NCBI RefSeq assembly: GCF_000400955.1
Contig: NC_021284.1
Location: 558,001 to 622,000 of the forward strand
Source: Spiroplasma syrphidicola EA-1
GTDB taxonomy: Bacteria; Bacillota_I; Bacilli_A; Mycoplasmatales; Mycoplasmataceae
Reading direction: 5' to 3'
Length of the DNA stretch: 64,000 nucleotides
Part shown: positions 3,330 to 63,723 of the stretch, one piece after another
Layout of the letters: each line of letters opens with the position of its first letter
How positions within the stretch are numbered: position 1 is the first letter of the stretch
Program-made: the position numbers and the translations under genes
Notes under the pieces: model-generated
The model's input: only the letters and a program-made list of their open reading frames with translations
What the model was told of the DNA's origin: nothing
Database searches by the model: none

Positions 3330-4101
3330 TTAAGGGGTGAATAACGTTGTTGATGCTGCTAACATCTTCGACAATACCATGTCTTTTCATGTTAAAGCCC
3401 GTTTCTCCTCATCTTGTACCATTCCAGCCATTACTAGCGGTGAAATAAGAAATAAGAACAATAATTCAAATATCTTTTGTGTTAAATCTAAACCTAGCAT
3501 TGCAACGGCAATCAAAACAAATCAGACCGCAAATATTTCAACAATAATACTTCCATCCCGAATATTTTCAGGAGCCATATAATCATTTACGGGTCCACTT
3601 CCACCATGGATATTTCCTGCTCAGTATAAGGTCTCCGCTATTTTAACTCCAGTTGTTCCAAAAATTGTATTTAGGATTGAAACAAATCATACAATAATTG
3701 TATTTACAAAGAAAAAAACCAAGGGGAATAAAGAAAACAAATACTCCTGCTAACCCGGTAAACCGCAAACAACGCATTAATTTTGGTTTCATTTAATCAG
3801 TTTCTTTAAACTGCAAAGTTAAAAATTGTGAAATAAAAATAATAACAAGTAGCCCAACATCCACAATTTCAAATTGTCAAAATGCTGTTGGAATATTTTC
3901 TCACGAAAATTGACTATTTGAATTAAATAATAAATCAAATACTATCCCTGATGATAAAAATATTAACACTTTATCAAAAACAGCAACTAACCCTAATGGC
4001 CCTCAAATAAAAATATTTCAAACAACCTTTAAAATTCCGTCCTGGACTCAATCAACAAATCCAAATAAATTTAAATTTAAACTATTAATAGCCTCTAACA
4101 T
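3330..4101 (-). pseudogene. Broken ICE membrane protein (Mbov_0396/TrbL-like)
   Basis: A polytopic membrane protein resembling the Mbov_0396 family of Mycoplasma integrative conjugative elements (TrbL/VirB6-like component of the transfer channel). From the ATG ending at 4101 the frame is open for about 102 codons, then meets TAA at 3793-3795 directly followed by ATG. It continues for about 30 codons and must then shift frame near the A7 run at 3711-3719 to recover the rest. The tail contains SPLVMAG and, further on, a TWKDMVLSKML segment typical of the family's end. It directly follows the pilin-like gene, as in ICE gene order. At least two lesions make it non-functional unless corrected. Confidence 0.6.
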
Positions 4102-4104
4102 ATA

Positions 4105-4422
4105 TTAACTAGTTGGAGGTTGATAACCCCCACCCCCATTTATTAATTCAGGTAAAATAGTATTTACAAAAATAGGGGCAAAAACGCATAATCCTAATCC
4201 AAATATACATCAAGCAATCGCAAAGATTTGAATGTTTCTCTGTTCAGGATCATCAGCAAATTTTTTAATTTTTAAGCCATGTTTAACGATATATAAAACA
4301 CAAATCGCTCCCGCAATAATTGAAATTGGGGTTAAAATAGCGTTTAGTAAAGTAACAACTAGCTTTGTTGTGCCACTAAAATCGGGCACATCTGCTAAAA
4401 TATTTAATAAAAATCCCATCAT
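4105..4422 (-). CDS. Mbov_0395-like pilin-like conjugal transfer protein
   Basis: About 105 residues with two hydrophobic helices separated by a charged loop (KHGLKIKKFADDPEQRN), the topology of VirB2/TrbC-like pilins. The C-terminus ends in a Gly-rich LINGGGGYQPPTS. In Mycoplasma ICEs this small gene lies immediately upstream of the Mbov_0396 membrane protein, exactly as here (stop of one, start of the next 3 bases later). The start chosen is the ATG at 4420-4422, because GGAG sits five bases upstream; a GTG at 4428 is an alternative. The frame is intact. Family assignment is from memory of the pair's organisation. Confidence 0.6.
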
Positions 4423-5407
4423 TCTCACTCCATTTCTTCTCTTTTTGTTTCAAATTCTTTATTTTGAATTTCTTTAGCACTTAAATACTTGTTAAACTCA
4501 GATTCGTATTCTTTAAAAGCACCTTCATTTCGAAACAATTGTAATCCGTACTCAGGCTTTAAATTTTTTAAATAATCGTCAAATGGCACTCTTAATTCTT
4601 CGAAATCATTTTGTTCAATAAGAATTTCATTATTCTTATTTAAAGTTTTAGCTTTTGTTTCTCAATCTAATACTTGCTCTGCACTAAAACCTATTTTCAT
4701 TAATCTAACACTAATTCCAACAATACCAATTTCATTATTAGCAAAAGCATGTCGTAAACTATAAATTTCATCACGAAACGATTCTTTTCGATAGTTTTGT
4801 TGAACTCTTTTTAAATGTTCAATTGTTTCTAAATAGTTTTTATTTTGATTAATATCATAATTAATTTCTTCTTCTTAAATTTCTAATTCACTTTGCGCAT
4901 ATCCATGCTCAACTTGATAATTTAATTCATTCTGAGCATCTTCATAACTAGTAAATGTATAAAGTAATTTATCATAATTTTCATCATGATTACCATTATC
5001 ATCAAATCCAATAACCTCATGCAATTCAAATATTGTTTTATTTTCTTTGGTTTTTAATTCTGGTTCTTTTTTTAATTCCATATAGTTTTTTAAATTTAAT
5101 TCACATTCAGCTATTGTTGGTTCAATTCCCAAACCTGGAAGTTCTTGTGTCATATATACATCAAAATCAACCATTATTTTTTCTTTTTCATTGCCAATAT
5201 TAATTTTTCCATCAGAGTTTAATGTTTTAAGTAATTTTTCTAAATTTATTACTTGCTCAGATGTATATCCGTATTTCATTAGTTCTACACTAAAATCTGG
5301 AACATGTATTTTTTTATCAGTCACTTTTTTGCTAAGGAATCAATCATATTCATTAATTTTAAAAATTTTTTACTTTTTAATATTTCAGCATTATATTTTT
5401 CTAACAT
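4404..5407 (-). pseudogene. Broken ICE-associated repeat protein
   Basis: Begins at ATG 5407 with AGGAGAG upstream. It needs a frameshift near the A-run at ~5328, and is then open for about 150 codons. It stops at TAA 4875-4877 and continues in the same frame to 4404, overlapping the pilin-like start. Both halves hold a copy of one motif: SVELMKYGYTSEQV with KTLNSDGKINI in the first half, SVRLMKIGFSAEQV with KTLNKNNEIL in the second. So the protein was a tandem duplicate of a ~100-residue acidic domain. I do not recognise the family; context suggests ICE cargo or a transfer accessory. The lesions match decay of the neighbouring membrane gene. Confidence 0.6.
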
Positions 5408-5432
5408 TTTTTTGCTCTCCTATCTATTTCAT

Positions 5433-5681
5433 CTATCTTTTTTTAAGATAATGTTTCTTTTGATTTTTATATTTTTTACCTTTGTGCACTAAAAAATTAA
5501 AACGATTCATAACTCAATATGATTTATTGATCTTAAAATTATTATTTAAAATTTTTTTAGCTTTAAAATTTTCATTAATTTGATATCGTGATTTTAAATT
5601 ATAGTCATATTCAATATAGTTATTTTTAATTTCTTGCTGTGAAAAAGGTTGCGATGATTTAATTGTTCATAATCCTGACAT
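5433..5681 (-). CDS. Small basic hypothetical protein, 82 aa
   Basis: ATG at 5681 with AAAGG upstream, two TGA-encoded Trp, stop at 5433. It is rich in Lys, Asn and Tyr, with a very basic C-terminus. It has no membrane segment and no recognisable family. It lies 25 bases ahead of the broken ICE repeat gene and probably belongs to the same element. Confidence 0.55.
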
Positions 5682-5719
5682 TTATAAACCTTTCATTCAA
5701 TTTTGTTCTTTACCAAATA

Positions 5720-5758
5720 AAAAAAACACATGCATACGATAAAAATCGTAGCATGTGT
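5720..5758 (-). terminator. Strong terminator after the propeller-receptor gene
   Basis: A 14-bp stem with one bulge (ACACATGC + TACGAT and complements) and a 4-base loop, followed on the minus strand by a T7 run. It separates the receptor gene from the ICE remnant. Confidence 0.85.
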
Positions 5759-5810
5759 CATTTGGTCATCTACACAAATATTATACTATAAAAACAAATA
5801 CTTTACTAAA

Positions 5811-7901
5811 CTATTCAGAATTCAACTGATAAATATCTTGATTAGAAGCAGCTAAAATAGACCCATTATTTAATTGTACTATAGATAATTTATTACCACC
5901 AAATTGTTTATCAACTATTTTCTTTTTAATTGTTCCATCCATATTCAACTGATATAGAGAATAACCTGTCGCAGCCAAAATCGTACCATCTGACAACTGG
6001 ATTAACGAACTAACACTACCATCAAATGCTACTCCTCCTGGTTGCTCTACTTTCTTTTTAATTGTTCCATCCATATTCAACTCATAAATATCTCTAGACC
6101 CACCAGCCAAAATCGTACCATCTGACAACTGCACTATTGTATGTAACGAAGTATTAGAACTATTACCAACTTTTTGTTTAATTGTTCCATCCATATTCAA
6201 CTCATAAATAAAACTATTAACTGATGATTCTACAGCTAAAATAGTTCCATTAGCTAATTGAAATAAGGTGTTAACAGAATTATCAAAACTTTGGCCATCA
6301 GGTTGCTCTACTTTCTTTTTAATTGTTCCATCCATATTCAACTCATAAATATCTCTAGACCCACCAGCCAAAATCGTACCATCTGACAACTGCACTATTG
6401 CATTTAACGAAGTATTAGAAGTATTACCAACTTTTTGTTTAATTGCTCCATCCATATTCAACTCATAAATAGAACCATAAGATGATGATTCTATGGCTAA
6501 AATAGTTCCATTTGCTAATTGAAATAATATAGAAACTCATCTTTTAAAACTTTGTCCATCAGGTTGCTCTACTTTCTCTTTTATAGTCCCTATATTTGGA
6601 TTAAATACACGATAATATATTGTTACTAATGGAGAATCAAGAATATATTCTTTGCTATTTTCGCTTACTTTTATTTCTGCCCTACTGTCTTCAATTGAAT
6701 TACTAACTATTTCAATTTGGTTAGTATCAATATTCGGATTTTTATTCTTAATTGCATCCATAATAATTTCTGGGTTTTTATTAACAATATCACCTAGGTC
6801 AACTTGTGATAAAACTTCTGATAAAAGTTTTTTGCCCGTTGTACTAAAGAAAATTTCTAAATTATCATCTTCGAGATAAATAGTATTATTTTCACTTGGA
6901 ATAAGTGTTGCTTTATAAACATCAGTAGTATAAGTTGAATTTTCAATTTTAAGTTGAACTTGTTCTTTTTTTAGTAACTTATTTTCTGGCGCGTTTACAA
7001 TCATATCTATTGTTTTTTCTGGATTTGCTAAATCTACTTCAGCAAAAAAATTTGTTTTTTTAACATGGGTTTGTAATGTAACTGTTTGTGGAGTAAATGA
7101 AACATTAACTAATGAACCAACAATATATGTTTTATTTGATGATAAAACAACAATGTCAGCAGTAGTTTCCGTAATATTTTTAACTAATAAATCTTCGACA
7201 ATCAAATCACTATTTTTATTTTTTGCCATACTTAAAATTGTTTCAGTTCTATTATCATTAATCTTCTGTAAATTTGAATCTACTAAATGATCTGATAAAT
7301 TAATTTGGCCTAATGCCGGCGGTAAGGAAATTATATTATTATTTTCCCCATGAATAAAATATCATCCTAAAAAACTCCCAACTGAACCTAAGATCAAAAT
7401 ACATATTAGAGTCAAAATTACTATTAATTTTCTTGTTTTAACTACTTGCAATGTCAAATGAGTATTATTGCGTTTAATCACATCAACTTGTGAAATAATT
7501 TTAGAAACATTATTTTCGATTTTACTATTAACGTTGGGAAGATTTGACAAAGAATTTACTATAACAAGATTATTATTAGCATCTTCCGCTATTTTATCGA
7601 TTGTTGCTTGTGATAACTTAATTGTATTATTGATTACTGGTATTTTTGAAGAACCATCGCCATTATAAAGAGAATTTTTTCAAAAAAAAGCATATGAATC
7701 ATTTTTACAATGAATAAAAGCCAAAGGTTTAACACCATGATCTTGATTAATTAACCGGTTTTTTTCAACTTTACATGAAAAAAATTCAAGATTTTTGATA
7801 TCTAAATTATTGTTATTTTTTATTTGAATAACAATTTGTTTAAACTTACTTTTACAACGAAAACACATTTTGTTATACAAAAATTCTATTTTATTTTTCA
7901 T
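5811..7901 (-). CDS. Membrane-anchored surface protein: Cys cluster, one TM helix, beta-propeller-like repeats (copy 1)
   Basis: 696 residues starting at ATG 7901 (GGAGG upstream), read through several TGA-Trp codons. Order: a short N-terminal module with cysteines at 13, 16, 43 and 65; a linker; one transmembrane helix at about 158-183 preceded by basic residues (Cys module inside, remainder outside); two ~100-residue domains with the pattern SSN-x-Y/ENS-x-Y, resembling repeats of Spiroplasma surface proteins; then six repeats of ~44 residues with the core DGTILAGGS...YELNMDGTIKKKV. Six such repeats would make a six-bladed propeller. Blades 1-2 and 3-4 are near-identical at DNA level (period 261 bases). 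A paralogue of the same length is at 36583-38673. A receptor or adhesin role is inference. Confidence 0.8.
6030..6460 (-). repeat. 261-base near-identical tandem repeat inside the propeller region
   Basis: The block encoding two blades is repeated with a 261-base period (for example TCTCTAGACC at 6091 and again at 6352), with only scattered differences. This points to recent duplication within the gene and makes it prone to recombination. Confidence 0.75.
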
Positions 7902-8129
7902 TTAATTCCTCCATAAATAATAAATTTTTTCATATTTTAATAATTATACTATAAAATTATAAAAATTAATTAAAACTTTCATGGTGTAATAATTCTAATA
8001 TTATATCCAAAATATTTTTTCCAAATTAAGCTTCATTAAACTAATTTCACCAACTTTTCTAACTTTGTATTTATTATTACCTAACTCTAAAAAATAATGG
8101 TGGAATGGCAAGAGTTTTTTGAACAAATT
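7902..8129. other. AT-rich intergenic stretch without a gene
   Basis: About 230 bases of very AT-rich sequence between the receptor start and the IS remnant. It must contain the receptor promoter (minus). I see no open frame with a ribosome site and no strong hairpin. Inactive IS end sequence may extend into it. Confidence 0.5.
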
Positions 8130-8431
8130 TTATATAGAGTAACGATTTTTATATTCAATTGGTGTTAAATAATTTAATTTGCTGTGAATTCGCACATTAT
8201 TATATCAATTAACAAAGTCAAATAATTCTAATTTAAATTGCTCAACATTTTTACACTTTCTGTTTTTAATTAATTCTGTTTTTAAAATTTTATAAGTTGA
8301 TTCAGAAACAGCATTATCATAAGGACATCCTGGTTTACTATAAGATTTTGCAACATTGTTTTTAGCTAAAATCTTGTAAATAATATTGTTATTAAATTCA
8401 CTGCCCTGATCAGTATGAAATATTTTAATTT
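8130..8431 (-). pseudogene. IS3-family transposase fragment (C-terminal part of OrfB)
   Basis: About 100 residues of a DDE integrase core. HTDQGSEF carries the second catalytic Asp, and CPYDNAVSESTYKILKTE carries the catalytic Glu. A C-terminal YNNVRIH..LNYLTPIEY tail typical of IS3/IS150 OrfB follows. The reading starts abruptly at 8431 and ends at its natural stop, so the N-terminal half, OrfA and the left end are missing. It is inactive. I could not define terminal inverted repeats. Confidence 0.85.
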
Positions 8432-8497
8432 AGTATGATAAATTTAAAATTAAAAAGCAAGCATTATTTCCTAAACATTTAAATATTTTTTAATTAA

Positions 8498-28061: not shown

Positions 28062-31000
28062 CTATTTTTTCTCTTTTAATAAATCATCAAAGGTAATTTG
28101 CAATTCTTTTGTTTCATCAATTGCCAAATCATTTTTAAATTGTGTTTTATCAACTTTTTTGTTAGTTGGTTTTTTATTGGTAAAATCAACTTTAATTAAT
28201 TTTTCTGGTTCTGGTATTTCTGATGTTATTGTTTTTTTAGTAACTAATTTTTCAACTGTCGTTGTTACTTTTCCAAATGACTTTAACTTAAATTCAGTTG
28301 GACTAACCGTTTTGGTAGGTTCCTTTATTTCTGGTTCTTTTACAACTTCCGAAACTGGTGAGATACTTTCCGCAGATTTTATCTGCTGTTTTTGTTCTTC
28401 TTTTTTAGCTAATAATTTTTCAACTGTCGTTGTTACTTTTCCAAATGACTTTAACTTAAATTCAGTTGGACTAACCGCTTTAACAGGTTCCTTTATTTCT
28501 GGTGCTTTAACAACTTCTGAAACTGGTGAAATACTTTCCGCAGATTTTACCTGCTGCTTTTGTTCTTCCTTTTTAGCCAATAATTTCTCAACTGTCGTTG
28601 TTACAGTTTGTGGCTTTACTTTGTTAGCCACATCAGGAACTGAAGGAACAGAATCTTCATTTTTTCCTTCTTGTTTCACTTCTTCAACTATTTGTGTTGA
28701 TGAAAGAGAGTTACTAATTGTTGTATCATCTTCTTTAACAGGCTCATTGAAATTTATCATTATCTTGTTTTGCGGGTTGAGGTCAACTTCATCATCATTT
28801 TTACTAATCGATGTTTGATCTTTAATCGCCCCTTTTTCACTTGCTACTTTACTTGGTGTTGAGACTGAACTTTTTGCTGGTGTTACTGAAGCTTTACTTT
28901 GCTTTTGATTTGCAGCAACGGCTTTTTTAACCCCAGCTTGACTAGGATGTTTTGGTTCACTCGGATTTACAGTTGGACTTGCCACCGATGGAATTTGTTT
29001 TAAATCATAAAATGTTGGAATTACGGCGTTAACAATGTTTTTTAACTCAAATTCACCAGCTGGTAATGCTAATCCAGTTACAGGTAATTTATCAACTTTA
29101 AAAACATTAATTTCATCATTTGCATTTAAAACATTTAAGACATCTTTATTTTTTGCAATAAATAATAATTTAACTAATTCTGGTGATTTTTTATTTTGTT
29201 TAAACAGACGAGCACCTTTAATTGGCCGAGCTGATAATGCTAATTCAGTTGTGGCAATTCGTTTGGCAGTTCCATGATCGGTCAACAATAAAATTGAGTC
29301 ATCTTTACAGTAACCAGCATTAACGACAATATCATCTTTTAAATTAATTGCCTTAACCCCAGCTGTTCGTAATCCTAAAGTTGGGATTTCACTAGCTTTA
29401 TATTTAACAGCAAAACCATTTGCTGTGGCAATAATAATATATGGTTGTTTTGTCACTAATTGACTATTAACAACTTCATCATCTCCTTTTAGGTTAATCG
29501 CACGAATCGCTTTACTAATTCGCGTTGCCATAAAATCAGGGACAGCTGTTTTTTTAATCATTCCATTTTTTGTTGCTAACATAATATAATTATCAGGTTT
29601 ATTAAAATCATTTAATAAGTAACAACCAATAATTTTTTCTTCCCCTGGTAATTCCGAAATTGTATTAACATGTTCACCAATATCTTTAATTTTTGAAACC
29701 TTAATTTTGTAAACCGGAATAATAACATAATTTCCTTTTGAAGTTATTAATAATAATTTATCTAAGGTATTAGCTTGTAAATCAGCAATTCAAAGATCAT
29801 TTGGCTTACGTTTAAAATCTTCATTTGCCAAACGCGCTAGTTGATTATTTTCTAATGCTTTAATATAACCATCATATGATACTCAAATATTTAAATCTTT
29901 TTCAATAATTGTTTCAGTTTTTTCAATTTCAATTGTTTCAATTTCTTCTTCAATAAAAGTACGACGAGGAGCATTAAACTTATTTTTAATTAATGTTAAT
30001 TGTTCAACAATAACACTATTTAATTTATTAATGTCACTTAAAATTGCTTCTAATTCTGTAATTAAATTTTTCAATTCTTTTTGTTCAGCTTGTAATTGTA
30101 AAATGTCAGTTGATGTTAAACGATATAAACGTAACTGCACAATTGCTTCCGCTTGTAATTGGGTAAATGAAAATTTTACCACTAAATTTTTAATGGCATC
30201 TTGGCGATCTTTAGAATGACGAATCACAGCAATTACTTCATCTAAAATGCTAACTGTTTTAATTAAACCATCAACAATTTCTGAACGTTTAGTTGCTTTA
30301 GCAAGTTCAAATTTTGAACGGTTTGTGACAATCTCTTGTTGGTGAGCAACATAATAACCAAGGATTTCTTTTAGTCCTAGTAATTTTGGTTGTTTATTAG
30401 CAATTCCAACAATATTAAAGTTATATGAAACTTGCAAGTTAGTATTTTTCAATAAGTATTTACGGACTGTTTCATAATTTGCTTGTTTACTTAATTCAAT
30501 AACAATTCGTAATCCTGTTCGATCAGTTTCATCTCGAACTTCTTTAATATTCAAGCCTGGTTCATTATATTTAATATCATCAATTTTCTTAACTAAATCT
30601 TGTTTAACAACTTCATAAGGAATTTCAGTAATAACTAAATTATTGTTTTCATTAGTAATTTTACTACGAATAATAATTTTTCCTTTTCCTGTTTGGTAAG
30701 CATCAATAATTCCTTGTTTGCCTTGGACAATTCCTCCCGTTGGAAAATCAGGGCCTTTAATAAATTTTAGTAACTCTGACAAACGACAAGTTGGTTTTGA
30801 TAAATAAAAAATTGTTGCATCAATAATTTCTGGTAAATTATGGGGTGGGATATTTGTTGCATATCCAGCTGCAATTCCTGTGGCCCCATTAATTAATAGG
30901 TTTGGGAATAACGCTGGTAAAACAACTGGTTCTTGTTCAGAATCATCAAAGTTTGGAATAAAAGCCACAGTATCTTTTTCTAGATCTTGTAATAAATAAC

Positions 31001-31397
31001 TAGCAACTTCACTTAATCTTGTTTCGGTATAACGCATCGCCGCTGCTGGGTCCCCATCAATTGAACCATTATTTCCATGCATATCAATTAATGGATAACG
31101 AACTTTTCAGTCTTGTGATAAACGAACCATCGCATCATAAACAGAAGTATCACCATGGGGGTGATACTTCCCAATTACTTCCCCAACAATCCGTGCTGAT
31201 TTTTTATAGCTCGAATTAAAAGTTAAATTTAATTCATTCATCGCAAAAAGGATTCGTCGTTGAACCGGTTTTAATCCATCACGCACATCAGGTAAAGCAC
31301 GATCTTGAATAATGTATTTGGCATAACGACCAAAACGGTCTTCCATAATATCATTTAAAGTATAAATTAAATTTTCTGGTTTAACATTATCACTCAC
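28062..31397 (-). CDS. parC: DNA topoisomerase IV subunit A with a long repeat-bearing tail
   Basis: 1111 residues, against about 750-880 in relatives. The N-terminal breakage-reunion domain holds the quinolone-region stretch [18 protein letters not shown] and the catalytic Tyr123 in AAMRYTE. The GyrA/ParC C-terminal repeats follow ([29 protein letters not shown]). From about residue 790 there is an acidic/Lys-rich tail absent from normal ParC, with two perfect-phase 56-residue repeats plus part of a third. It decatenates chromosomes with ParE. Start is GTG 31397 with AAAGGA ten bases upstream. It follows parE by 24 bases. Two Trp codons are TGA. Confidence 0.95.
28253..28640 (-). repeat. 168-base tandem repeat in the parC tail
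   Basis: CAACTGTCGTTGTTAC recurs at 28253, 28421 and 28589, exactly 168 bases apart. Two full units and part of a third encode [18 protein letters not shown] and the following SPVSEVV and [10 protein letters not shown] segments. Units differ at only a few bases. Confidence 0.9.
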
Positions 31398-34332: not shown

Positions 34333-34363
34333 AAACTTAGGATTATCCTAAGTTTTTATTTTT
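34331..34363 (+). terminator. Terminator of plsY
   Basis: A 12-bp stem AAAAACTTAGGA/TCCTAAGTTTTT with T-rich tail. It lies between convergent plsY and typA and may serve both. Confidence 0.9.
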
Positions 34364-36199
34364 TTATTCTACTGGTGTTTGTTCTTGTTTTTCATATTGT
34401 TTTCGTTCACTAGCATTTAATCATTTCTTACGTAAACGAATATTTAATGGTGTAATTTCAACTAATTCATCATTTTCAATAAATTCTAATGATTCTTCTA
34501 AATTCATAATGATTGGTGGTGATAAGCGAATGGCATCATCATTTCCAGCTGATCGCGTATTTGTTAACTTTTTATTTTTACATGGGTTAACAACTAAATC
34601 ATTACTACGACTATGAATTCCGACAATCATTCCTTCATAGACTTTTGTTCCTGGAGTGACAAATAAACTTCCGCGTTCTTCTAACGCCCCTAAAGCATAG
34701 GCGGCTGTTGTTCCTAATTCATTTGCAATTAAGACCCCATTACCACGACTAGGGATTTCACCTTTATATTGTTCATAACCACTAAATTTACGAACTAAGA
34801 TTCCTTCTCCATGAGTTGCATTAATAAATTCACGTTGATAACCAATTAAACCACGCGTTGGAATACTATATGTAATCTTAGTATGAGTTCCGACCATATC
34901 CATATTTAACATTGTTCCTTTACGTAAATTTAATTTTCCAATTACTGTTCCTGAATACTCATCCGGAACAGTAATAATCACTTCTTCCATTGGTTCTAAT
35001 AAGACATTAACATCATCACGGCGTAGAAGAACTTCTGGTTTTGAAACCGCTAGTTCAAACCCTTCGCGGCGTAGATTTTCTAATAAAATCGATAAGTGTA
35101 ATTCTCCCCGTCCTGAAACACGGAATCCATCAACACTTGAATCACTTAATGGTTGGACACGTAATCCGACATTAACTTCTAATTCTTTTTCTAATCGTTC
35201 TTTAATATTACGAGTTGTAACAAATTTTCCTTCTTTTCCAGCAAATGGTGATTTGTTAACTAAAAAGTTCATTGCTAAAGTTGGTTCTTCAATTGTAATT
35301 GGTTCCATTGCAACAACATTATTTTTATCACAAATTGTATCTCCAATTGAAATATCACTAATTCCAGCAATAATAACAATATCCCCAGCAACCGCTGTTT
35401 GTTTTTTAATTCGTTTTAATCCTTCATAGACAAAAACACCAGTAATTTTTCCTTTTGCTAATTGACCATCATTTTTAGCAATTGTCACTTCTTGCCCTTC
35501 ACTAATTGTTCCAGCAAATAAACGCCCAATTCCTAAGCGCCCAATATATTCATCAAAAGCTAAAGAACTAACTTGCATTCTTAATGGTTCACTAGTTAAA
35601 TCCGGATATGGTGTGACATGATTAATAATTGTTTCAAATAACGGAATTAAATTTTCTCCTTGATCAGTTAATTCTTTTTGCACAATTCCTTGTTTAGCAA
35701 TTCCATATAAAACTGGAAAGTCTAATTGTTCATCAGTTGCTCCTAAATTCATAAATAATTCTAAAGCTTCATTAACAACTTCCGCTGCTCGTTGATCTTT
35801 TTTATCAATTTTATTAATTAATAAAATTGGACGTAACCCTAATTCTAATGATTTTTGCAATACAAAACGTGTTTGGGGCATTGGCCCTTCACTTGAATCG
35901 ACTAATAAGATTACTGTATCAACGGTTTTAATAATACGTTCAATTTCTGATGAAAAATCAGCATGGCCAGGGGTATCAACAATATTGATTTTATAATCCT
36001 TATAGTTAATCGCACAATTTTTTGCATAAATTGTAATTCCCCGCTCTTTTTCTAAGGCATCACTATCCATTATCAGGTCCACAATTTGGGCATTCTCATG
36101 AAAAACACCACTTTGTTGCAATAAAGCATCAACTAACGTTGATTTACCAGCATCAACATGGGCAATCACGGCAATATTAATAATTTTTTTATGTTCCAT
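34364..36199 (-). CDS. typA: GTP-binding protein TypA/BipA
   Basis: 611 residues. A ribosome-associated translational GTPase involved in stress and late ribosome assembly. G1 AHVDAGKST, G3 DTPGHAD and G4 NKID are present, followed by the EF-G-like domains and the BipA-specific C-terminus (STRGLIGYQREF-like IPTRGLIGYQREF). The start is taken at ATG 36199, because GAGGAG lies six bases upstream; an in-frame ATG 21 bases earlier lacks a site. The C-terminal 20 residues follow a TGA-Trp and are acidic/Lys-rich. Confidence 0.97.
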
Positions 36200-36582
36200 T
36201 TTTTTCTCCTCAATTATCATAACTAATTAATTATACTTGATATTTTTAAAAAAAGATAATCAATTAATAAATCGTTTTAATAATTTACGTTGTTGATCAT
36301 AATTCTGGTTGATCACTAATATGTTATTTTCTTTGATAAATTTTCTAATGTATAATTGTTTTTAATTTTATGTAAATGGTCATTTTTATCTTAACATAAA
36401 ATAAAAAAATCCTATCTATTAAAATAGGATTAAATTTAATAAACAAATTATTTTTATACTTTAATCCTTATAAAATTTAGATATTAAGAGTAAAAAATGC
36501 ATTACAAATATTAAAAAATTTAATCATGCATTTATTAAAATTTAACTAAAAAATAAATCAGAATAATCAAAATAATTATTTT
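36200..36582. other. Intergenic region between typA and the second receptor gene
   Basis: About 380 AT-rich bases with no supported gene. It contains the typA promoter region (minus), a terminator-like hairpin at 36402-36431 and a weak TGCAT-based inverted repeat around 36495-36532. Confidence 0.6.
36402..36431 (-). terminator. Terminator downstream of the second receptor gene
   Basis: An AATCCTAT/ATAGGATT stem (36409-36431) with T7 on the minus strand, about 150 bases beyond the stop of the gene at 36583. Confidence 0.75.
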
Positions 36583-38673
36583 TTATTCAGTTCTTAATTT
36601 ATAAACTGAAGCTTCAACAGATAACATAAAGAAATCTCCATTTGGAAGTTGAACTGTTCCAAAAGCGGATTTGCGAAAAGCCTCAACTTGTTCTTTAACA
36701 GTACCATCATCATTTAGTTGATAATTTGTTTGCATGCTTGTTGCCAAAATCGTTTCATCCTTCAATTCTATTATAGAATAAATGCCATTTTTAAAATCAC
36801 CAACCTTTTTAATAATCTTACCTGCCATTGTTAGTTGAAAAATTCTTCCTCCAATAGAATTCTTTCATCCTCCAGCCAAAATAGTATTATTTGATAATTT
36901 TACTAGTGATGAAATTACCACGCCAAGATTTTCCTGAACTGTTGCAATTACTTTGCCATCTTTATTTAATTGATAGATTGCCCCATTATATCCTCCAGCC
37001 AAAATGGTTCCATCTTCTAATTGTAAAAAAGAAGTAATGGTATAAGAGTTCTGAATTTTTTCTTGATTAATAACTGAACCATCAGAATGCAAATGTCATA
37101 CAGTCTGTCTCCCAGTTGATACTAAAATAGTGTTATCATTTAATTTACCAATTGCTTTAATCGAATTGTCGTCGCCCATCTCATCATTAATTTTTGATTT
37201 AAATGTTCCATCTGAATTAAGTAAATATAAACCAGTATTTGTTCCAACTAATATTTTTTTGATACTATCTAAATATAATATTCCATTACCACTTGTAGCA
37301 TCATTAAACTCAGTTGAATCAGTAGTTGGTATTGAACTAATTACAGTACCAATATCTTTATTAAATACACGATAATTAACTTGAATTGGGTCAGTATCTA
37401 AAATGTAATCTTCATTATATTTTGTCGATACTTGAATAAAAGCAGAAGAATTAAGAATTGTTCCCTTTTCAACTTCAATTGCTTTTAGATTTACTTCCGG
37501 ATTCTTTTCCCCAATTTTATTTATGATTGTATCTTCTTTTTTATTTAAAATATCCTCAAGATTAACGTCAGTTAAAACTTCTGATAATAATTTACGATTA
37601 CTTTGACTAAAATATAATTTTAAAACATCACTATTTAAATAAATTTTACTATTTTCAATGACAGTTAAGTCAACTTGCAAGACATCATCACCAATCTTAT
37701 TAAAATTTTCTATTTTAACATTACTTGTAACCAAATCAGCATTTTCAATAGACCCTTTAACTATATCTAATAGTTCCTCTGACGTCCCGCTAGTGACAGT
37801 TTTTGGAAAATTTACTTTTTTAACATCAGTTGCTAATGTTATTAACTCTGGTAAGTAATTTACTTCAACCGAAGAATTATGCAAATAAATATTACTTGAT
37901 GATTTTACAAAAACACTAGCTTTACTAGCTTTAATATTTTTAAGATAAAGATCATCTTTTTTCAAATTATTATTTTGGGCCACTGCAGCATTTAAAATAG
38001 TCTCTTCTCTATTATCAGGAATCGGTCCTAAATTACGCTTTGTTAATACTTCTGCTAAATCAATACGTCAATTTGGATCTGATGATTGTGAGCCAGCAAT
38101 TTTATTTTCAATTCGTGTAAAATATCATCCTAAGGTTCCAGCAACTACTCCGATAATTAAAATAAAACCTAAACCTAAGCTTAAAATTAGTTTTTTAATC
38201 TTTGACATATGTAAAAGATGTTGACGATTCATAATTAACATTTGTCGACCAAAATGATTTTTTAAGGAATTACTATTTTCATTAATAAGTTTTGAAGCAA
38301 TTAATTCTGTTTTCTCTTTTTTAATGACAGCTAATTGTTGTTGATTTGTTGATTTTTCTTTAATTCTCTCAATTGTTGCTTGTGATAATGTGATTACATT
38401 ATTTACCATATTTAACTTGGGTGATCCATCACCATTATATAAATCCTCTTTTCAAAAGAAAGCATAAGAATCATGTTTACAGAAAATAAAAGCTACAGGA
38501 ATAACCCCATTGTCTTCATCAATATCGTGGTTTTTATCAATATTACATTTAAATAATTCTAAATCATCTAAATCTTTTAAAATGTTTTTCTTAACAGCAC
38601 TAACAACTTTTTTAAACTTTTGTTGGCAACTAGTACACATATTGTCGTAAAATACTTGCATTTTATTTTTCAT
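36583..38673 (-). CDS. Membrane-anchored surface protein: Cys cluster, one TM helix, beta-propeller-like repeats (copy 2)
   Basis: 696 residues, exactly as long as the paralogue at 5811-7901 and with the same plan. Cysteines are at 13, 16, 43 and 65, the same spacing, followed by KHDSYAFFW. A shared LSQATI motif precedes the TM helix at about 162-184. Two ~100-residue external domains follow (each with a Y..N/DS..V..NY/YY strand and a LLSEVL segment). Six propeller-like repeats are recognisable from LVGTNTGLYLLNSDGTFKSKI to the last YKLRTE. Here the repeats have diverged and show no near-identical DNA copies. GGAGG precedes ATG 38673. A T17 tract lies upstream of the -10 box. Function unknown; receptor or adhesin is inference. 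Confidence 0.8.
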
Positions 38674-38726
38674 ATTCAGTTCACCTCCAAATGATACAAT
38701 ATAAATATTTTTAATTACTTGGCGTA

Positions 38727-38732
38727 ATTATA
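38727..38732 (-). promoter_or_regulatory. -10 box of the second receptor gene
   Basis: The minus strand has TATAAT about 55 bases before the ATG. A tract of 17 T (38766-38782) lies roughly 34-50 bases upstream of it, where an UP-element would be; changes in its length could alter expression. Confidence 0.45.
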
Positions 38733-38891
38733 TATTAAAACATAAAAAATTATTACTATTTTTGCAAAAAAAAAAAAAAAAATCAAAAAAATGAAAAAAA
38801 TTGGTAAATTAAGTTCCAAATAAAAAAATATTAAATATTTAAACTATACTTCAATAAAAAACCGATAATTATGGATATCTCCAATTTAAAT

Positions 38892-38919
38892 ATCAAAAAG
38901 ACTGAATAATTTCAGTCTT
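38892..38919 (-). terminator. Terminator of the FtsX-type permease gene
   Basis: A 9-bp stem AAGACTGAA/TTCAGTCTT with T5 tail on the minus strand. Confidence 0.85.
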
Positions 38920-38967
38920 ATAAAATATAAGTTTTCAAACAACCTTTTTTTATTCAGTTAATAAATG

Positions 38968-41900
38968 TTATTTTGTCAAATCAATTAACCGTTCACGACG
39001 TAAACGAATTAAAACAATCATTGTAATTGCACTTGTCAGAACAAATAACGCTAGAATAACTATCACAATACTTTGCCATGAAAAGACTAATTCAAATAAT
39101 AAACCCGTTAAAGAAAAAATAAAACTAGTTAATAATTGCCAAGCATAGAAGGAAATTAAGAATGGTAACCCTAAACCAATCACAAAAGCAATTATATATC
39201 ATGATAAAACATAATTCATAATTTTAAAGTTACTATAGCCCATTGCTTTTAAGGTTGCCATAATTCCTTTATTTTCCTCAACTACAATATTAACTAAAAC
39301 CATTAAAATAAAGGCCACAATAATAAAAGTAAAAATAGCTGTAATTTGAATTAATAAAGTAGCATTTTTAAAAACATTTTCTAAAGATGTTTGTAATAAA
39401 TCAAGGGGCATTAAACTATTTGCATTATTTAAAATTGCCGTTGCATATATTACAGCCTCATTTTGATCTTTAGCTGAGGTTGGGGTAAAGTAAATATAAT
39501 TTTCTGGTTTTAAACCATTTTTTGAATAAATTGTTAAATAATGTTCAGGTTGAAAGCCTTCTTTCCGTTTGGAAATCAAGCGATTTTGGCCAAAAACTTT
39601 TTTATCAACTTGATCTGGAATTCGGTCAATCCCTAATAAACTCCGAAGAGTTTTACTATCCATATAAATATTATTGGTTGTAGTATCATTATTTGTATAA
39701 CCAACAACTTGTAATAAGGTTGTTTGATAATCTTTTGGCGAAGTTTTAACTTTTCATTCAAATGGGTGAGTAATGGGAATTTCATTACTATATCATATTT
39801 TTTTTGAAACAACAATTGGAATAGCAGTTGAATTTGATAGTGGTTTAAAAAGATTATTAACATAGCTAGTATTATCATCAAAATTATAATAATCAGCAAA
39901 ATTAGTTTCTTGGTCTAAACCAATAACACTCGCTTGGCGGATTTTAGTATTATCTTCTAATTGTAAAGGTTCAATTGAGGTTGAAAACAATGGTAATTCA
40001 TCATTTGAATCATAAATAAATTTTCCAAAACTTAAATTTGGGATTGATGGCTGTAATTTAGCATTTTGTAAATAAAATTTGATTTTGACAAATAATTCTG
40101 GTGTCGTTGCAGATTGAACTGTGCTTAATAATTCATCAAAAGATTTACTATTAATTACTTGTTTTAAATAATCACCATTAAGACACTTATTCATCATTGG
40201 TTGAGAGATAATTCTAATTATTTCGTTTCCTGGTTTATTTTTACCAACTTCGTCGTTTTGATCCGTAAAAGTAATTGGCATATATTTATTTGCTCATTCT
40301 CACGAACAATTAAAACTATTTTCATCAATATCTGCTGGAAAGATTTCTGACTCTGGAATTCAATTGTAATTAAAAGTAGTTGGGTCAGGGTTTATTGCTA
40401 ATTTATCATTTGCCAGTTGATATGAAAACTGAAAAGGAATATCAATTACTTGGGTTGTTTTTTGGGTATACGGTGTTCGAACACTAGCAACATATTTATT
40501 AAATAAATCAATAGCATTAAACTCAAAAAACAACACTAAAGTTCCAAAAAGGAAAGTTAACAAAGTTGTAATCCATTTTGTAATTGATTTTTGGGCAAAA
40601 GAAGTGGCAATTTTGACACCAAATGGTAAATAAAGGACGGGTTTTTTACGAATTGTTCTAAATTTTTTCCCAATTTTAAGACTATTAAATTGTTTTTGAT
40701 TATTAATTAATGTTAACGGATTTTTATTCAATAAATTAATCGTAATTAGCATTAAAATCATTATAAAAATTAATGGAATAGTGACCAGAAAAACAGCAAA
40801 AATAATTCAATTGTTATAAAAATCACTAAATGGTAATAATGCAAATGGTTTGTATAAAATAATAAAGTAACTAGCAAACCCAAAGGCAAAAATATAACCT
40901 AAAATTGAACCTAAAATAATTGTTAAAACAATTGGAACAATAATACTTAAGGCTAATTGCCAAGTACTATAACCAAGTGATTTTAAAATCCCTAATGTTT
41001 GATGTTGAGCGGCAATATCACGTTTAATAAAAAAGTACATAATCGTTAAAATAACCAAGCTGGCGGCAAAACAAACTACGGCAAAAATAATATAATCAAT
41101 CAAAATTAAAATTTCTTGTTGACCAGGTTCCCCAAAATCATCATACTTAGTAATTGTTTGATTTCAAGTTGTTGAAAAATAGTTAGTTATTAAAGTATTT
41201 AACTCTTTAAAACTATTATTAAAATTATCATTATTGTTAAAGCGGATATAAGCTTGATAATTATTTGTTAAAGCCGGATTATATTCAAAAATATTTTTAT
41301 AGCCATTATCGGTCATATAAACCAAAGCAAAATTAGTTGAAGATGAACCATTGTAATTACCATTAATTGTCCGAAACGCTTCTAACATTAAATCACTATA
41401 ACGATAACCATTTCCAACAATTTCAAATTGATTTGGTTTACCATCTTTCACCCCTAAATTAAGCAAATCATTATTTTTTAAGCCATTTTTACTCATAAAA
41501 TAACTATTAACAAAAATTTCACCATCACTAATACTAGTCGCTGTTTTAATATTGTTACTAATATCAACACGGTTTAAGTTATTATTGCTTCACAATTGAT
41601 TTATGTTATGGTGAAAAGCATTAATTAGATGATAAGTTGTCTCATTAATTGTTAAATCGGCACTATTATCAACCATCAGTTCTCAATTTAATGGTTTTTT
41701 TGTTTGGGAATCTAAGCTAGTTGTTAAAATATTTTTTAGACTATAAATTAAATAGTTACAATTTACTCCTTTAAATTCTTCAACAAACTGGGATAATGAT
41801 TTTCCAGGTTTAAAACTTAAATTATGTTGACTAATAAAAGTTTGTAATTGATCAGTAATCCCTTTTTGTGAATCAAGACAAACTTGGGTATTATTATTTG

Positions 41901-42213
41901 TTTTTTCAATAAATTCAATTCAATCTGAAATCATCGTTTTTTGATCAAAGTTAGCAAAACCAATTCAATCACTTGCTAAAGCATTATAACTACGACTATT
42001 TAAATCCATTTTATTTAAATTGACATGCGTATCATAACGAATTGAATTGTTAACTGCATTTGTATATAAGACATCTAACTGAGCATTATAATTAAACATC
42101 CCAGCAAATACCCCAACTGATAAAATTAATAGAAAAAAGATTGATAAATAGTTTAATAGTTTTTTTGAAATATACTGTAATGAATTTTTAATTAACTTAT
42201 TGATAAAATTCAC
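38968..42213 (-). CDS. Giant FtsX/MacB-type ABC permease, 1081 aa
   Basis: One continuous frame once TGA is read as Trp; I checked the in-frame triplets across the gaps between TGA codons and saw no TAA or TAG. An N-terminal helix (~20-42) is followed by a large extracellular domain. The first FtsX helix set comes at about 371-470 with ILKSLGYS, a second extracellular domain follows, and a last FtsX set has TLKAMGYS. So the gene encodes two FtsX modules in one chain. No ATPase gene is adjacent. Family members release lipoproteins, export peptides or transmit mechanical force. The ends are marked by a terminator and by the mtnN 3' end. Confidence 0.85.
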
Positions 42214-42288
42214 CCTCTTCCCAAGAAAAACATGTTTGTTAAGGATAAAAAAGTTTTTATAGTCTACTAATTAAATTATAATAAAAAG

Positions 42289-42957
42289 TTAGCAAGATAG
42301 CATTAAATTATCAATAATATTTTTAATTTTTTTACTTGCTAATAATAAATTAGTTTTAAATTCAACTTCCGAATTAATTGGCGAAAAAACCTGGTCACTA
42401 ATAATTTTAACTGCAACAATTGGAATGTTAAAACTATAAGCTGTTTGGAAAAAAGCTGTTCCCTCCATATCACTAACAGTAAGTTCGACTGGGATTGCTC
42501 TTAAATGTGCTAAATGATTTGAACTATTAATAAAAACATCACTTGTTCCTAACAATCCCACTTTAGCATCAGGGGCAATCTTTTTTAAACAAGTCATTAA
42601 GGTTTGATCACTTTGATAACCAAATGGTTCTTGGGGAATTTGTCCTAATTGATAGCCAAAAACTGTTGCATCAGCAAAAGTATAATAAGCTTTTTCAATA
42701 ATAACAATATCTTGAATTTTAACTGTTGGGATTAAACTCCCTGCTGTCCCTAAATTAAAAATTTTACTAATGTCAAAATTTTGAATAATTGTTGTTAAAG
42801 CAATTGCAGCATTAACTTGACCAATTTTTGTAATAGCAAATAATCAATCATTTTTTTGATAAACTTTTAAGCCATTTTTATTATGAATTAATTGTGCTGC
42901 TAAACTAGTTAATGTTTCGCTAAGTTCTTCAGCCATTGCACTAATTATTAATTTCAT
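42289..42957 (-). CDS. mtnN: 5'-methylthioadenosine/S-adenosylhomocysteine nucleosidase
   Basis: 222 residues. Cleaves adenine from MTA and SAH, by-products of methylation and polyamine synthesis. MAEE near the N-terminus gives the catalytic Glu; VSDMEGTAF holds the ribose-binding Glu; IISDQV holds the catalytic Asp. Length is normal. Its ATG overlaps the stop of nadD-yqeK (TAATG), so translation is coupled. Supplies SAH removal for methyltransferases such as TlyA. Confidence 0.93.
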
Positions 42958-61626: not shown

Positions 61627-63723
61627 TTATTTTTTTGGTTTTGATTCATCAATTAACATCCCATTAATAACCTTTTTCCCTTCTTTTTGATATTTATCAA
61701 TTAAAATTTTAGGTAATGGTTGTGGTTTAACATATTTATTTTTTAAATGTTTTTGTTGCCGAGCAGTTTTTTTCAAATTCTTAGCAATTAATTTTTCTTT
61801 TTGTTGTTGTTCATTTACCTCTTTTAGATATTGGCGTTCAATTTCGCGAATTTCTTTGGGATGATAACCCTCATAGGTATAAATATTTCTTGTTAAATCC
61901 TTGTCTAAGTCGGGTCGTTTTTCTAAATTAAAATAGTCAATTTGATAATCTGGTAATTCTTTTGGAGCAAAACTTTCCTCATTATCAATGTTTTTACTAC
62001 TTTTTTTTGTTTTTCTTAAACTTCTTTTCCCTACTTGCTTAATATCATTTTGTTCGTTATCTTTGCTAGCATTATTGAATGTTTCCCCATATTTTAATTT
62101 TTTTAAATTTGGTCGTTTTTTTGGATCAATAATTGAAACATATTTTTCCTCGATAACTTTATTTTCTTTACCCAGAGTTATTTTTGGTTCAGCTTTAATG
62201 TCATCGGAAATCGATGATGCCATTGCCATAGTCTGTTGCTCTTTTTTAAGTTTTTCTTCATTTGAAATTACCAAAGACTTAATTTCTAAAAGCTTATTAT
62301 TATCCAATTCTGTATTATTAGGATTTGATTTAATAACTGTTTTAATCGCCGTTGATTCAGCAATATAATTTGAAATAACTTTGCCATCAAAAATCCGTTT
62401 TTTACCAAGGGTATTTTTGAAAGCGGCACCACTAATTTGTTTTTGTTTCGCTAAAATTTCTTGAGTTGTCACTCGTTTACGACGTGGAGCTGGTTCAGCA
62501 CCTTTTTTTTGTGATGAACCAATAAATTCTTTTCATTGTTGGGGAGTTAAATCCCGACCAGCAATTAATTTTAACTGTCCTGGTGATAACTTAAAGTTTT
62601 GATTAATAACATTAATTTTATTAAGACTTTCTTGCTCCTGATGAGTTTCAACTTCCAGGTTTGTCTTTACACCAGTCTTGGCAAGACGATCATTATTATA
62701 TTGTGGTTTAACACTATCACGACGTTTTAATAGTTCAACTTGAGTCTTACTTAACCCAAATGTTTTTGATTTTAATTTAATTCGTTCATTAAATGATACA
62801 ATTTCTTTATTTTCAGAAATAGCATTATCTTCATTTGCTAACATTTCATCAAAAAAATTTGTGGTTGGTTGTTCATTAAAAGGTGATGGTAATGAGGCGT
62901 CTTTTTGACTATTTTCACCTGATGTTAAAGTCTTTGACCTTTGAGGATATCCTGAACTAGTGTTTTTTACATCATTATTTCGTTTTTTTAATAATTCCAA
63001 TTGTGTTTTATTTAACCCAAATGTTTTTGATTTTAATTTAATTCGTTCATTAAATGATACTAATTCCTTATTTTCCAAACTAGTGTTATCATTATTTGCT
63101 AACATTTCATCAAAAAAATTTGTGTGAGGTTGATCAGCAACCCGCGATGATAGTGAATCCTTTTTCTGCACGTTTTCATTTGATGTTTCAGCATTCAAAT
63201 TCTTAAGATTGCTTAAGCTAAGTTGTTTTTTCCCATTCTTACGGCTTTTTAATAATTCTAATTGTGTTTTACTTAATCCTTTATTTTTGGCACTTAATTT
63301 AATTTTTTCGTTAAACATAAAAGCATTAGTTTCCGATGAACTATTATTAATTAATGGTAGCGGGACTTGGTTAACTTTCTTAATTTGTGGGCTAGCATTT
63401 GAATGCAAAACTTTTTCTGACTTTCTTTCGTTACGTAAATGTTTTGTTGGTGCTGTTGTTCCCTTCGATTCTGTTAATTTTTCCCCCAAAAGGTTTTTAA
63501 CAAATTTTAAATATTGCGCTTGGTATTTTTGAGATAGATCTGTTGTTTTTCCTGAATTTTTGTCTGTTGTTTTCATTAATTTTTGATATTCTTGTGAAGC
63601 TTTTCAACTTTTAATTAAAATTTTTGACATTTCCGGTGTTTGATCTGGCAAGATAAATTGTTTGTTTAATTCTGCTAACTTAATATCTTCTGTTTTGTTT
63701 ATCATTGCAAGATTTTTTTTCAT
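61627..63723 (-). CDS. 698-aa lysine-rich repeat protein with KRP motifs
   Basis: One frame from ATG 63723 (AGAGGTAAAG upstream) to 61627 across TGA-Trp codons. Three repeats with an 87-residue period at about 137, 224 and 311, each with FNERIKLKSKTFGLxKTQLELLKxR preceded by TNFFDEMLAN. A degenerate fourth (NFKLSPGQLKLIAGRD) follows near 376. The C-terminal third holds two KRP motifs (DPKKRPNL ~534-540, LEKRPDL ~600-606) and a coiled coil. No signal peptide or TM. A palindrome overlaps its likely promoter. Not a known family; scaffold or cytoskeletal role is inference. Confidence 0.78.

What the first reader, a model, noticed from the sequence alone, without database searches (positions are those of the whole stretch)
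5811..7901. A paralogous pair of propeller receptors with a conserved intracellular Cys cluster
Copies at 5811-7901 and 36583-38673 are both 696 residues. Each has cysteines at exactly 13, 16, 43 and 65, then a TM helix, two external domains and six blade-like repeats. The identical Cys spacing in otherwise diverged proteins implies a metal-binding domain under selection inside the cell, joined to an external sensor or adhesin. I know of no described receptor type with this order, which makes it the best candidate here for a new signalling or host-contact system. A receptor role is inference.
Basis: partly seen in the sequence, partly recalled or inferred. Interest (0 to 1): 0.72.

Follow-up and report, generated by a model that had tools for sequence, protein, structure and literature searches.

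The report
Spiroplasma surface proteins with exchangeable heads
These two genes belong to a Spiroplasma-only family of cell-surface proteins that keep one conserved cysteine-bearing part inside the cell and swap a six-bladed propeller "head" outside, probably to vary how the bacterium contacts its insect host.

Summary
Both genes are real. They lie on the minus strand, read with code 4, are 696 aa each, 38% identical, with Cys at exactly 13, 16, 43 and 65, one TM helix and six blades. They are not a pair but two of 8 copies in this genome; the sister genome has 14 hits, and 12 of 14 genomes of the genus have the N-domain. It is in no Pfam family and was found only in Spiroplasmataceae. C13 and C16 are invariant (40/40). 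Position 65 is Cys (35) or His (5). C43 is Cys in only 19/40. AlphaFold2 gives a closed six-bladed propeller (Z about 23 to DFPase and TRIM2 NHL). Topology is N-in; Cys is almost confined to the N-domain.

The strongest new result is mosaicism. Paralogues share about 90% identity in the N-domain but about 33% in the propeller. At one syntenic site the gene is 46% identical while its neighbours are 87-96%. The 36583-38673 gene is cleanly absent from the sister genome. No response regulators and one sigma factor were found in 14 genomes, so classical signalling is unlikely.

Best explanation: a variable, non-lipoprotein host-contact (adhesin-like) family on a constant intracellular anchor, probably metal-binding. 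New variant of a known kind.

The parts
5811..7901 (-). family member 1 (P0001), 696 aa
   Evidence: ORF under code 4; 8 copies in the genome
7572..7901 (-). cytosolic N-domain of member 1 (residues 1-110; C13, C16, C43, C65)
   Evidence: alignment A6, counts
7365..7427 (-). transmembrane helix of member 1 (residues about 159-179)
   Evidence: hydropathy and positive-inside count
6594..7310 (-). three stalk repeats of member 1 (residues about 198-436)
   Evidence: reading of alignment; copy L051 carries the same kind of repeats and matches MAG1450-family lipoproteins
5814..6593 (-). six-bladed propeller of member 1 (residues 437-696)
   Evidence: AlphaFold2 model, VIA Z 22.9, blade HMM
6040..6583 (-). 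tandem duplication of a two-blade unit, 261 bp x 2.1, 91% matches
   Evidence: Tandem Repeats Finder
36583..38673 (-). family member 2 (P0002), 696 aa
   Evidence: ORF under code 4
38344..38673 (-). cytosolic N-domain of member 2 (residues 1-110)
   Evidence: A6; AlphaFold2 of residues 1-112
38128..38190 (-). transmembrane helix of member 2 (residues about 162-182)
37366..38067 (-). three stalk repeats of member 2
   Evidence: alignment to P0001
36586..37365 (-). six blade repeats of member 2
   Evidence: blade HMM finds 6
36274..38957 (.). stretch carrying member 2 that is absent at the syntenic site of the sister genome
   Evidence: blastn: window 34335-36273 and 38958-42499 are adjacent in L238
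46077..46124 (.). place where the sister genome carries an extra family copy (about 2.3 kb in L058) and this window has none
   Evidence: blastn, gene synteny

Best explanation
A Spiroplasma-specific multigene family of single-pass, N-in surface proteins. A conserved domain of about 110 residues (C-x2-C ... C/H, probably a metal site) sits in the cytosol. One TM helix and stalk repeats carry a six-bladed propeller head outside. The family expands, recombines, gains and loses whole copies and decays, so the head varies while the inner domain stays constant. I infer that the head binds host surface ligands and that the inner domain ties every head to one common intracellular partner, for example the membrane cytoskeleton. 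Shown here: architecture, predicted propeller fold, distribution, mosaicism and presence/absence. Inferred: surface exposure (from topology and relatives), metal binding, ligand binding, common partner.
For: Eight copies here and 14 hits in the sister genome. N-domain found in 12 of 14 genomes of the genus; no credible match outside the family in 296 genomes of the class. N-in topology: 182 K/R before the TM against 53 after; Cys 171 of 4999 residues in N-domains against 32 of 19857 outside. Propeller: pLDDT about 87, 24 strands, Z about 23 over 247-249 residues; 20 sequences keep exactly six blades at about 30% identity. Mosaics: N 0.89-0.94, propeller 0.33-0.35 among three paralogues of the sister genome, with a sharp DNA-level step. 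Syntenic copies: flanks 87-96%, family gene 46%; in another syntenic pair dN/dS is about 0.10 in the N-domain and about 0.64 in the propeller. Clean absence of member 2 in the sister and an extra copy there. Stalk-type repeats match mollicute surface proteins: MAG1450 family E 1.4e-54 (below that model's whole-protein cut-off), Spiralin 3.4e-6. No canonical signalling partners.
Against: No ligand, localisation or expression data. One syntenic pair (L054/L063) is about 91% identical throughout, so not every head varies. Propellers also do enzymatic and structural work. Fast divergence could be relaxed constraint, and several copies in the sister genome are broken. The metal site lacks a universal fourth ligand.
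Confidence: 0.6

Rival explanations
1. The N-domain is a cytosolic thioredoxin-like redox domain; the protein links an external propeller to thiol chemistry inside the cell.
For: Profile-profile score to thioredoxins 27.1 against 12.7 +/- 2.0 (max 19.4) for shuffles that keep CxxC; best PDB profile hit is thioredoxin-like 2-1, E 0.24; Pfam Thioredoxin E 0.037 for member 2.
Against: All database E-values are at chance level, and a Dicer-related helicase domain ties in the second PDB search. The AlphaFold2 model has a helix, not a strand, before CxxC, and no thioredoxin is among its Foldseek matches. The dipeptide between the Cys is very variable, and C/H65 conservation is not explained.
Confidence: 0.15
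2. True sensory receptor: ligand binding by the propeller changes the N-domain and signals inside.
For: Constant inner domain with variable outer domains is also the logic of receptor families.
Against: No response-regulator domain in 14 genomes of the genus and a single sigma-70 region 2 gene in each. No enzymatic or output domain was seen in the members read.
Confidence: 0.12
3. The propeller is an extracellular enzyme or metabolite-binding domain (PQQ-like, SMP-30-like), not a host-contact head.
For: Closest folds include DFPase and lactonases; some members hit SMP-30 or PQQ-like models weakly.
Against: About 12% identity to those structures; heads at syntenic sites diverge so fast that a conserved active site is unlikely. 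Active-site residues were not compared.
Confidence: 0.1

Closest known systems
Variable surface lipoprotein families of mollicutes (MAG1450 family here; Vsp/Vpma-type families from my own knowledge)
   Same: multicopy, recombining; stalk-type repeats related to NF046007 in copy L051
   Different: signal-anchor TM behind a conserved 110-residue cytosolic Cys domain; no signal peptide with lipobox seen; propeller head
PQQ-like propeller proteins of Spiroplasma noted in PMC12453411
   Same: propeller-domain genes in the Chrysopicola, Mirum, Citri and Poulsonii clades; function stated as unknown
   Different: the passages read describe PQQ-ETX proteins with a signal peptide and PQQ genes without ETX; this N-domain and TM architecture is not mentioned there
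Spiralin (PF05215)
   Same: spiralin-like domain outside the membrane in members L118 and, below cut-off, L112
   Different: spiralin is a lipoprotein without cytosolic domain or propeller (own knowledge)
Six-bladed propellers: DFPase, TRIM2/NHL
   Same: fold, Z 22.9 over 247-249 residues
   Different: 12-15% identity; context and probable role differ

Membership tests
six-bladed beta-propeller fold | six four-stranded blades closing a ring | tested here: met
   24 strands, Z about 23 over the whole domain of P0001; six repeats in P0001 and P0002. Predicted, not solved
mollicute variable surface protein family | multicopy, mosaic, copies gained and lost between close relatives | tested here: met
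mollicute variable surface protein family | shown to lie on the cell surface and to vary within a population | not testable with these tools
   topology is predicted only; no isolates of one species were compared
mollicute variable surface lipoprotein | N-terminal signal peptide with lipobox cysteine | tested here: not met
   110-residue soluble N-domain precedes the only TM; P0002 has no Cys after residue 65
four-Cys zinc domain | four conserved ligands | tested here: not met
   C13, C16 40/40; 65 C or H 40/40; C43 19/40
metal-binding domain in general | bound metal | not testable with these tools
   C to H exchange at 65 is suggestive only
thioredoxin fold | strand-CxxC-helix core and structural match | tested here: inconclusive
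   profile signal but no structural match of a model from 4 sequences
two-component receptor | a response regulator as output | tested here: not met
   no PF00072 in 14 genomes
zinc anti-sigma factor | partner ECF sigma factor | tested here: not met
   one Sigma70_r2 gene per genome

The most novel reading that the evidence does not exclude
The N-domain is a new cytosolic metal-binding fold that serves as a genus-wide chassis: one intracellular docking site onto which Spiroplasma plugs at least five kinds of external head, so that a wall-less helical cell couples variable host contact to its internal skeleton.
Probability: 0.3. Interest if true: 0.72.

Novelty: new variant of a known kind. Interest (0 to 1): 0.52.

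Why it matters
Few proteins are known by which Spiroplasma binds insect tissue. A family with one constant inner domain and swappable heads gives a testable set of candidates across the genus, and an unnamed domain whose binding partner may connect adhesion with the cytoskeleton. It also groups RefSeq 'hypothetical proteins' (for example WP_147076951.1 on an S. citri plasmid) into one system.

Tried and rejected
HMA metal domain for the N-domain: hhalign score 19.9, inside the CxxC-kept shuffle range up to 23.1. MsrB/Mss4-like: the test had only one usable sequence, so uninformative. RIG-I-like (DRH-3) C-terminal domain: a tied E 0.35 PDB hit that would line up CxxC and C65 with zinc ligands; chance level, not pursued. 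Foldseek and VIA on the N-domain model gave no match in PDB or viral models; this does not prove a new fold. Phage origin: no match in phage records. Genome contigs gave only S. poulsonii and S. phoeniceum relatives plus one hit in an unrelated genome that I take for chance. Short TTAATAAAT direct repeats flank the member 2 stretch, but in AT-rich DNA this may be chance.

Full report
Observation. Under code 4 the two genes are on the minus strand at the stated coordinates, each 696 aa. They align end to end at 38% identity, E 5e-130. Cys fall at 13, 16, 43 and 65 in both. Apart from one TM Cys in P0001, neither has any further Cys.

Not a pair. The window is 558001-622000 of a 1,107,344-bp chromosome. 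Eight places there encode the N-domain; the sister genome (1,123,322 bp) has 14 hits. From memory these sizes match S. syrphidicola and S. chrysopicola; no tool confirmed the names. Twelve of 14 genomes in the genus and two more in the family have it. Among 296 genomes of the class, the only hits outside the family were three weak ones that begin after the CxxC. Pfam and NCBIfam have no model for it.

N-domain. In 40 diverse members C13 and C16 are invariant. Position 65 is Cys in 35 and His in 5. C43 is Cys in 19, otherwise mostly Ile or Val. The Cys-to-His exchange and the free choice of the two residues between the Cys favour a metal site over a redox CxxC, but this is inference. AlphaFold2 on residues 1-112 with four sequences gave one model of five at pLDDT 82, the others about 40. 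It has helix 4-11, CxxC at the start of helix 14-29, strands 38-46, 61-64, 69-74 and 93-97, and helix 98-110. No match stood out in PDB or BFVD. Against that, profile-profile comparison with thioredoxins stands about 7 standard deviations above shuffles that keep CxxC. The fold is unresolved.

Topology. In 48 members long enough to judge, one TM helix follows the N-domain. Lys and Arg are 182 before and 53 after it, and Cys is 3.4% of N-domain residues against 0.16% outside. This indicates N-in, C-out.

Outside. The model of P0001 has 24 strands in residues 440-693 at pLDDT about 87. It aligns with closed six-bladed propellers over the full domain at Z about 23 (DFPase 2gvv, 2.8 A, 247 residues; TRIM2 NHL 7qrv, 3.2 A, 249 residues). 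Twenty sequences keep exactly six blades. The stalk consists of three related repeats. A 990-aa paralogue with the same kind of repeats and no propeller matches MAG1450 lipoproteins, and other members carry a Spiralin domain. The same N-domain thus carries at least five kinds of exterior: stalk plus propeller, propeller without stalk, repeats only, spiralin-like plus propeller-type repeats, and the shorter citri-clade form.

Evolution. Mean pairwise identity in 16 propeller-type members is 0.58 in the N-domain and 0.30 in the propeller. In the sister genome three copies share 0.89-0.94 of the N-domain but 0.33-0.35 of the propeller; DNA identity drops sharply (about 0.9 to 0.5) at the propeller start in one pair and after the TM in another. 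At syntenic sites: one gene is 91% identical; one is 68% with flanks mostly 91-97%; one is 46% with flanks 87-96%. For the second, dN/dS is about 0.10 in the N-domain and about 0.64 in the propeller. Member 2 is missing from the sister genome exactly between its two neighbours, while the sister has an extra copy where this window has 48 bp. The stretch around member 1 (3346-8472) gave no match at the syntenic site, which holds other DNA. At least three copies in the sister genome are broken by frameshift or stop. Member 1 carries a 261-bp duplication, which is two blades.

Function. Response regulators are absent from all 14 genomes and each has one sigma-70 gene, so the usual routes for a sensor are missing. 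A constant inside with a varying outside fits host contact better. In S. citri the relative is annotated 'hypothetical protein'. A 2025 study records PQQ-like propeller genes in these clades with unknown function (PMC12453411).

Verdict. Real, ordinary in its propeller, unusual in its constant cytosolic domain and its mosaic heads. New variant of the known kind 'variable mollicute surface protein'.

Noticed in passing
window 28062-31397 (-): Topoisomerase IV A-like protein of 1111 aa with a long C-terminal low-complexity tail holding three near-copies of a '[18 protein letters not shown]...[12 protein letters not shown]' unit.
   Followed up: no
window 61627-63723 (-): 698-aa protein with three near-copies of 'FNERIKLKSKTFGLSKTQLELLK' spaced through a disordered-looking N-terminal half.
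   Followed up: no
window 3346-8472: About 5.1 kb including member 1 has no counterpart at the syntenic site of the sister genome, which holds about 6.7 kb of other DNA instead.
   Followed up: partly
L055 and L056 (sister genome), downstream of family copies: Broken family copies lie just upstream of transposase-like reading frames with shared flanking DNA; IS elements may help move or break them.
   Followed up: partly
L131 (S. poulsonii) and L229 (S. citri plasmid): The citri-clade relative lies between helicase genes and ruvA/ruvB-like genes; the S. citri copy is on a 123-kb plasmid beside helicases and a RuvB fragment, as if a chromosomal segment had been copied.
   Followed up: partly
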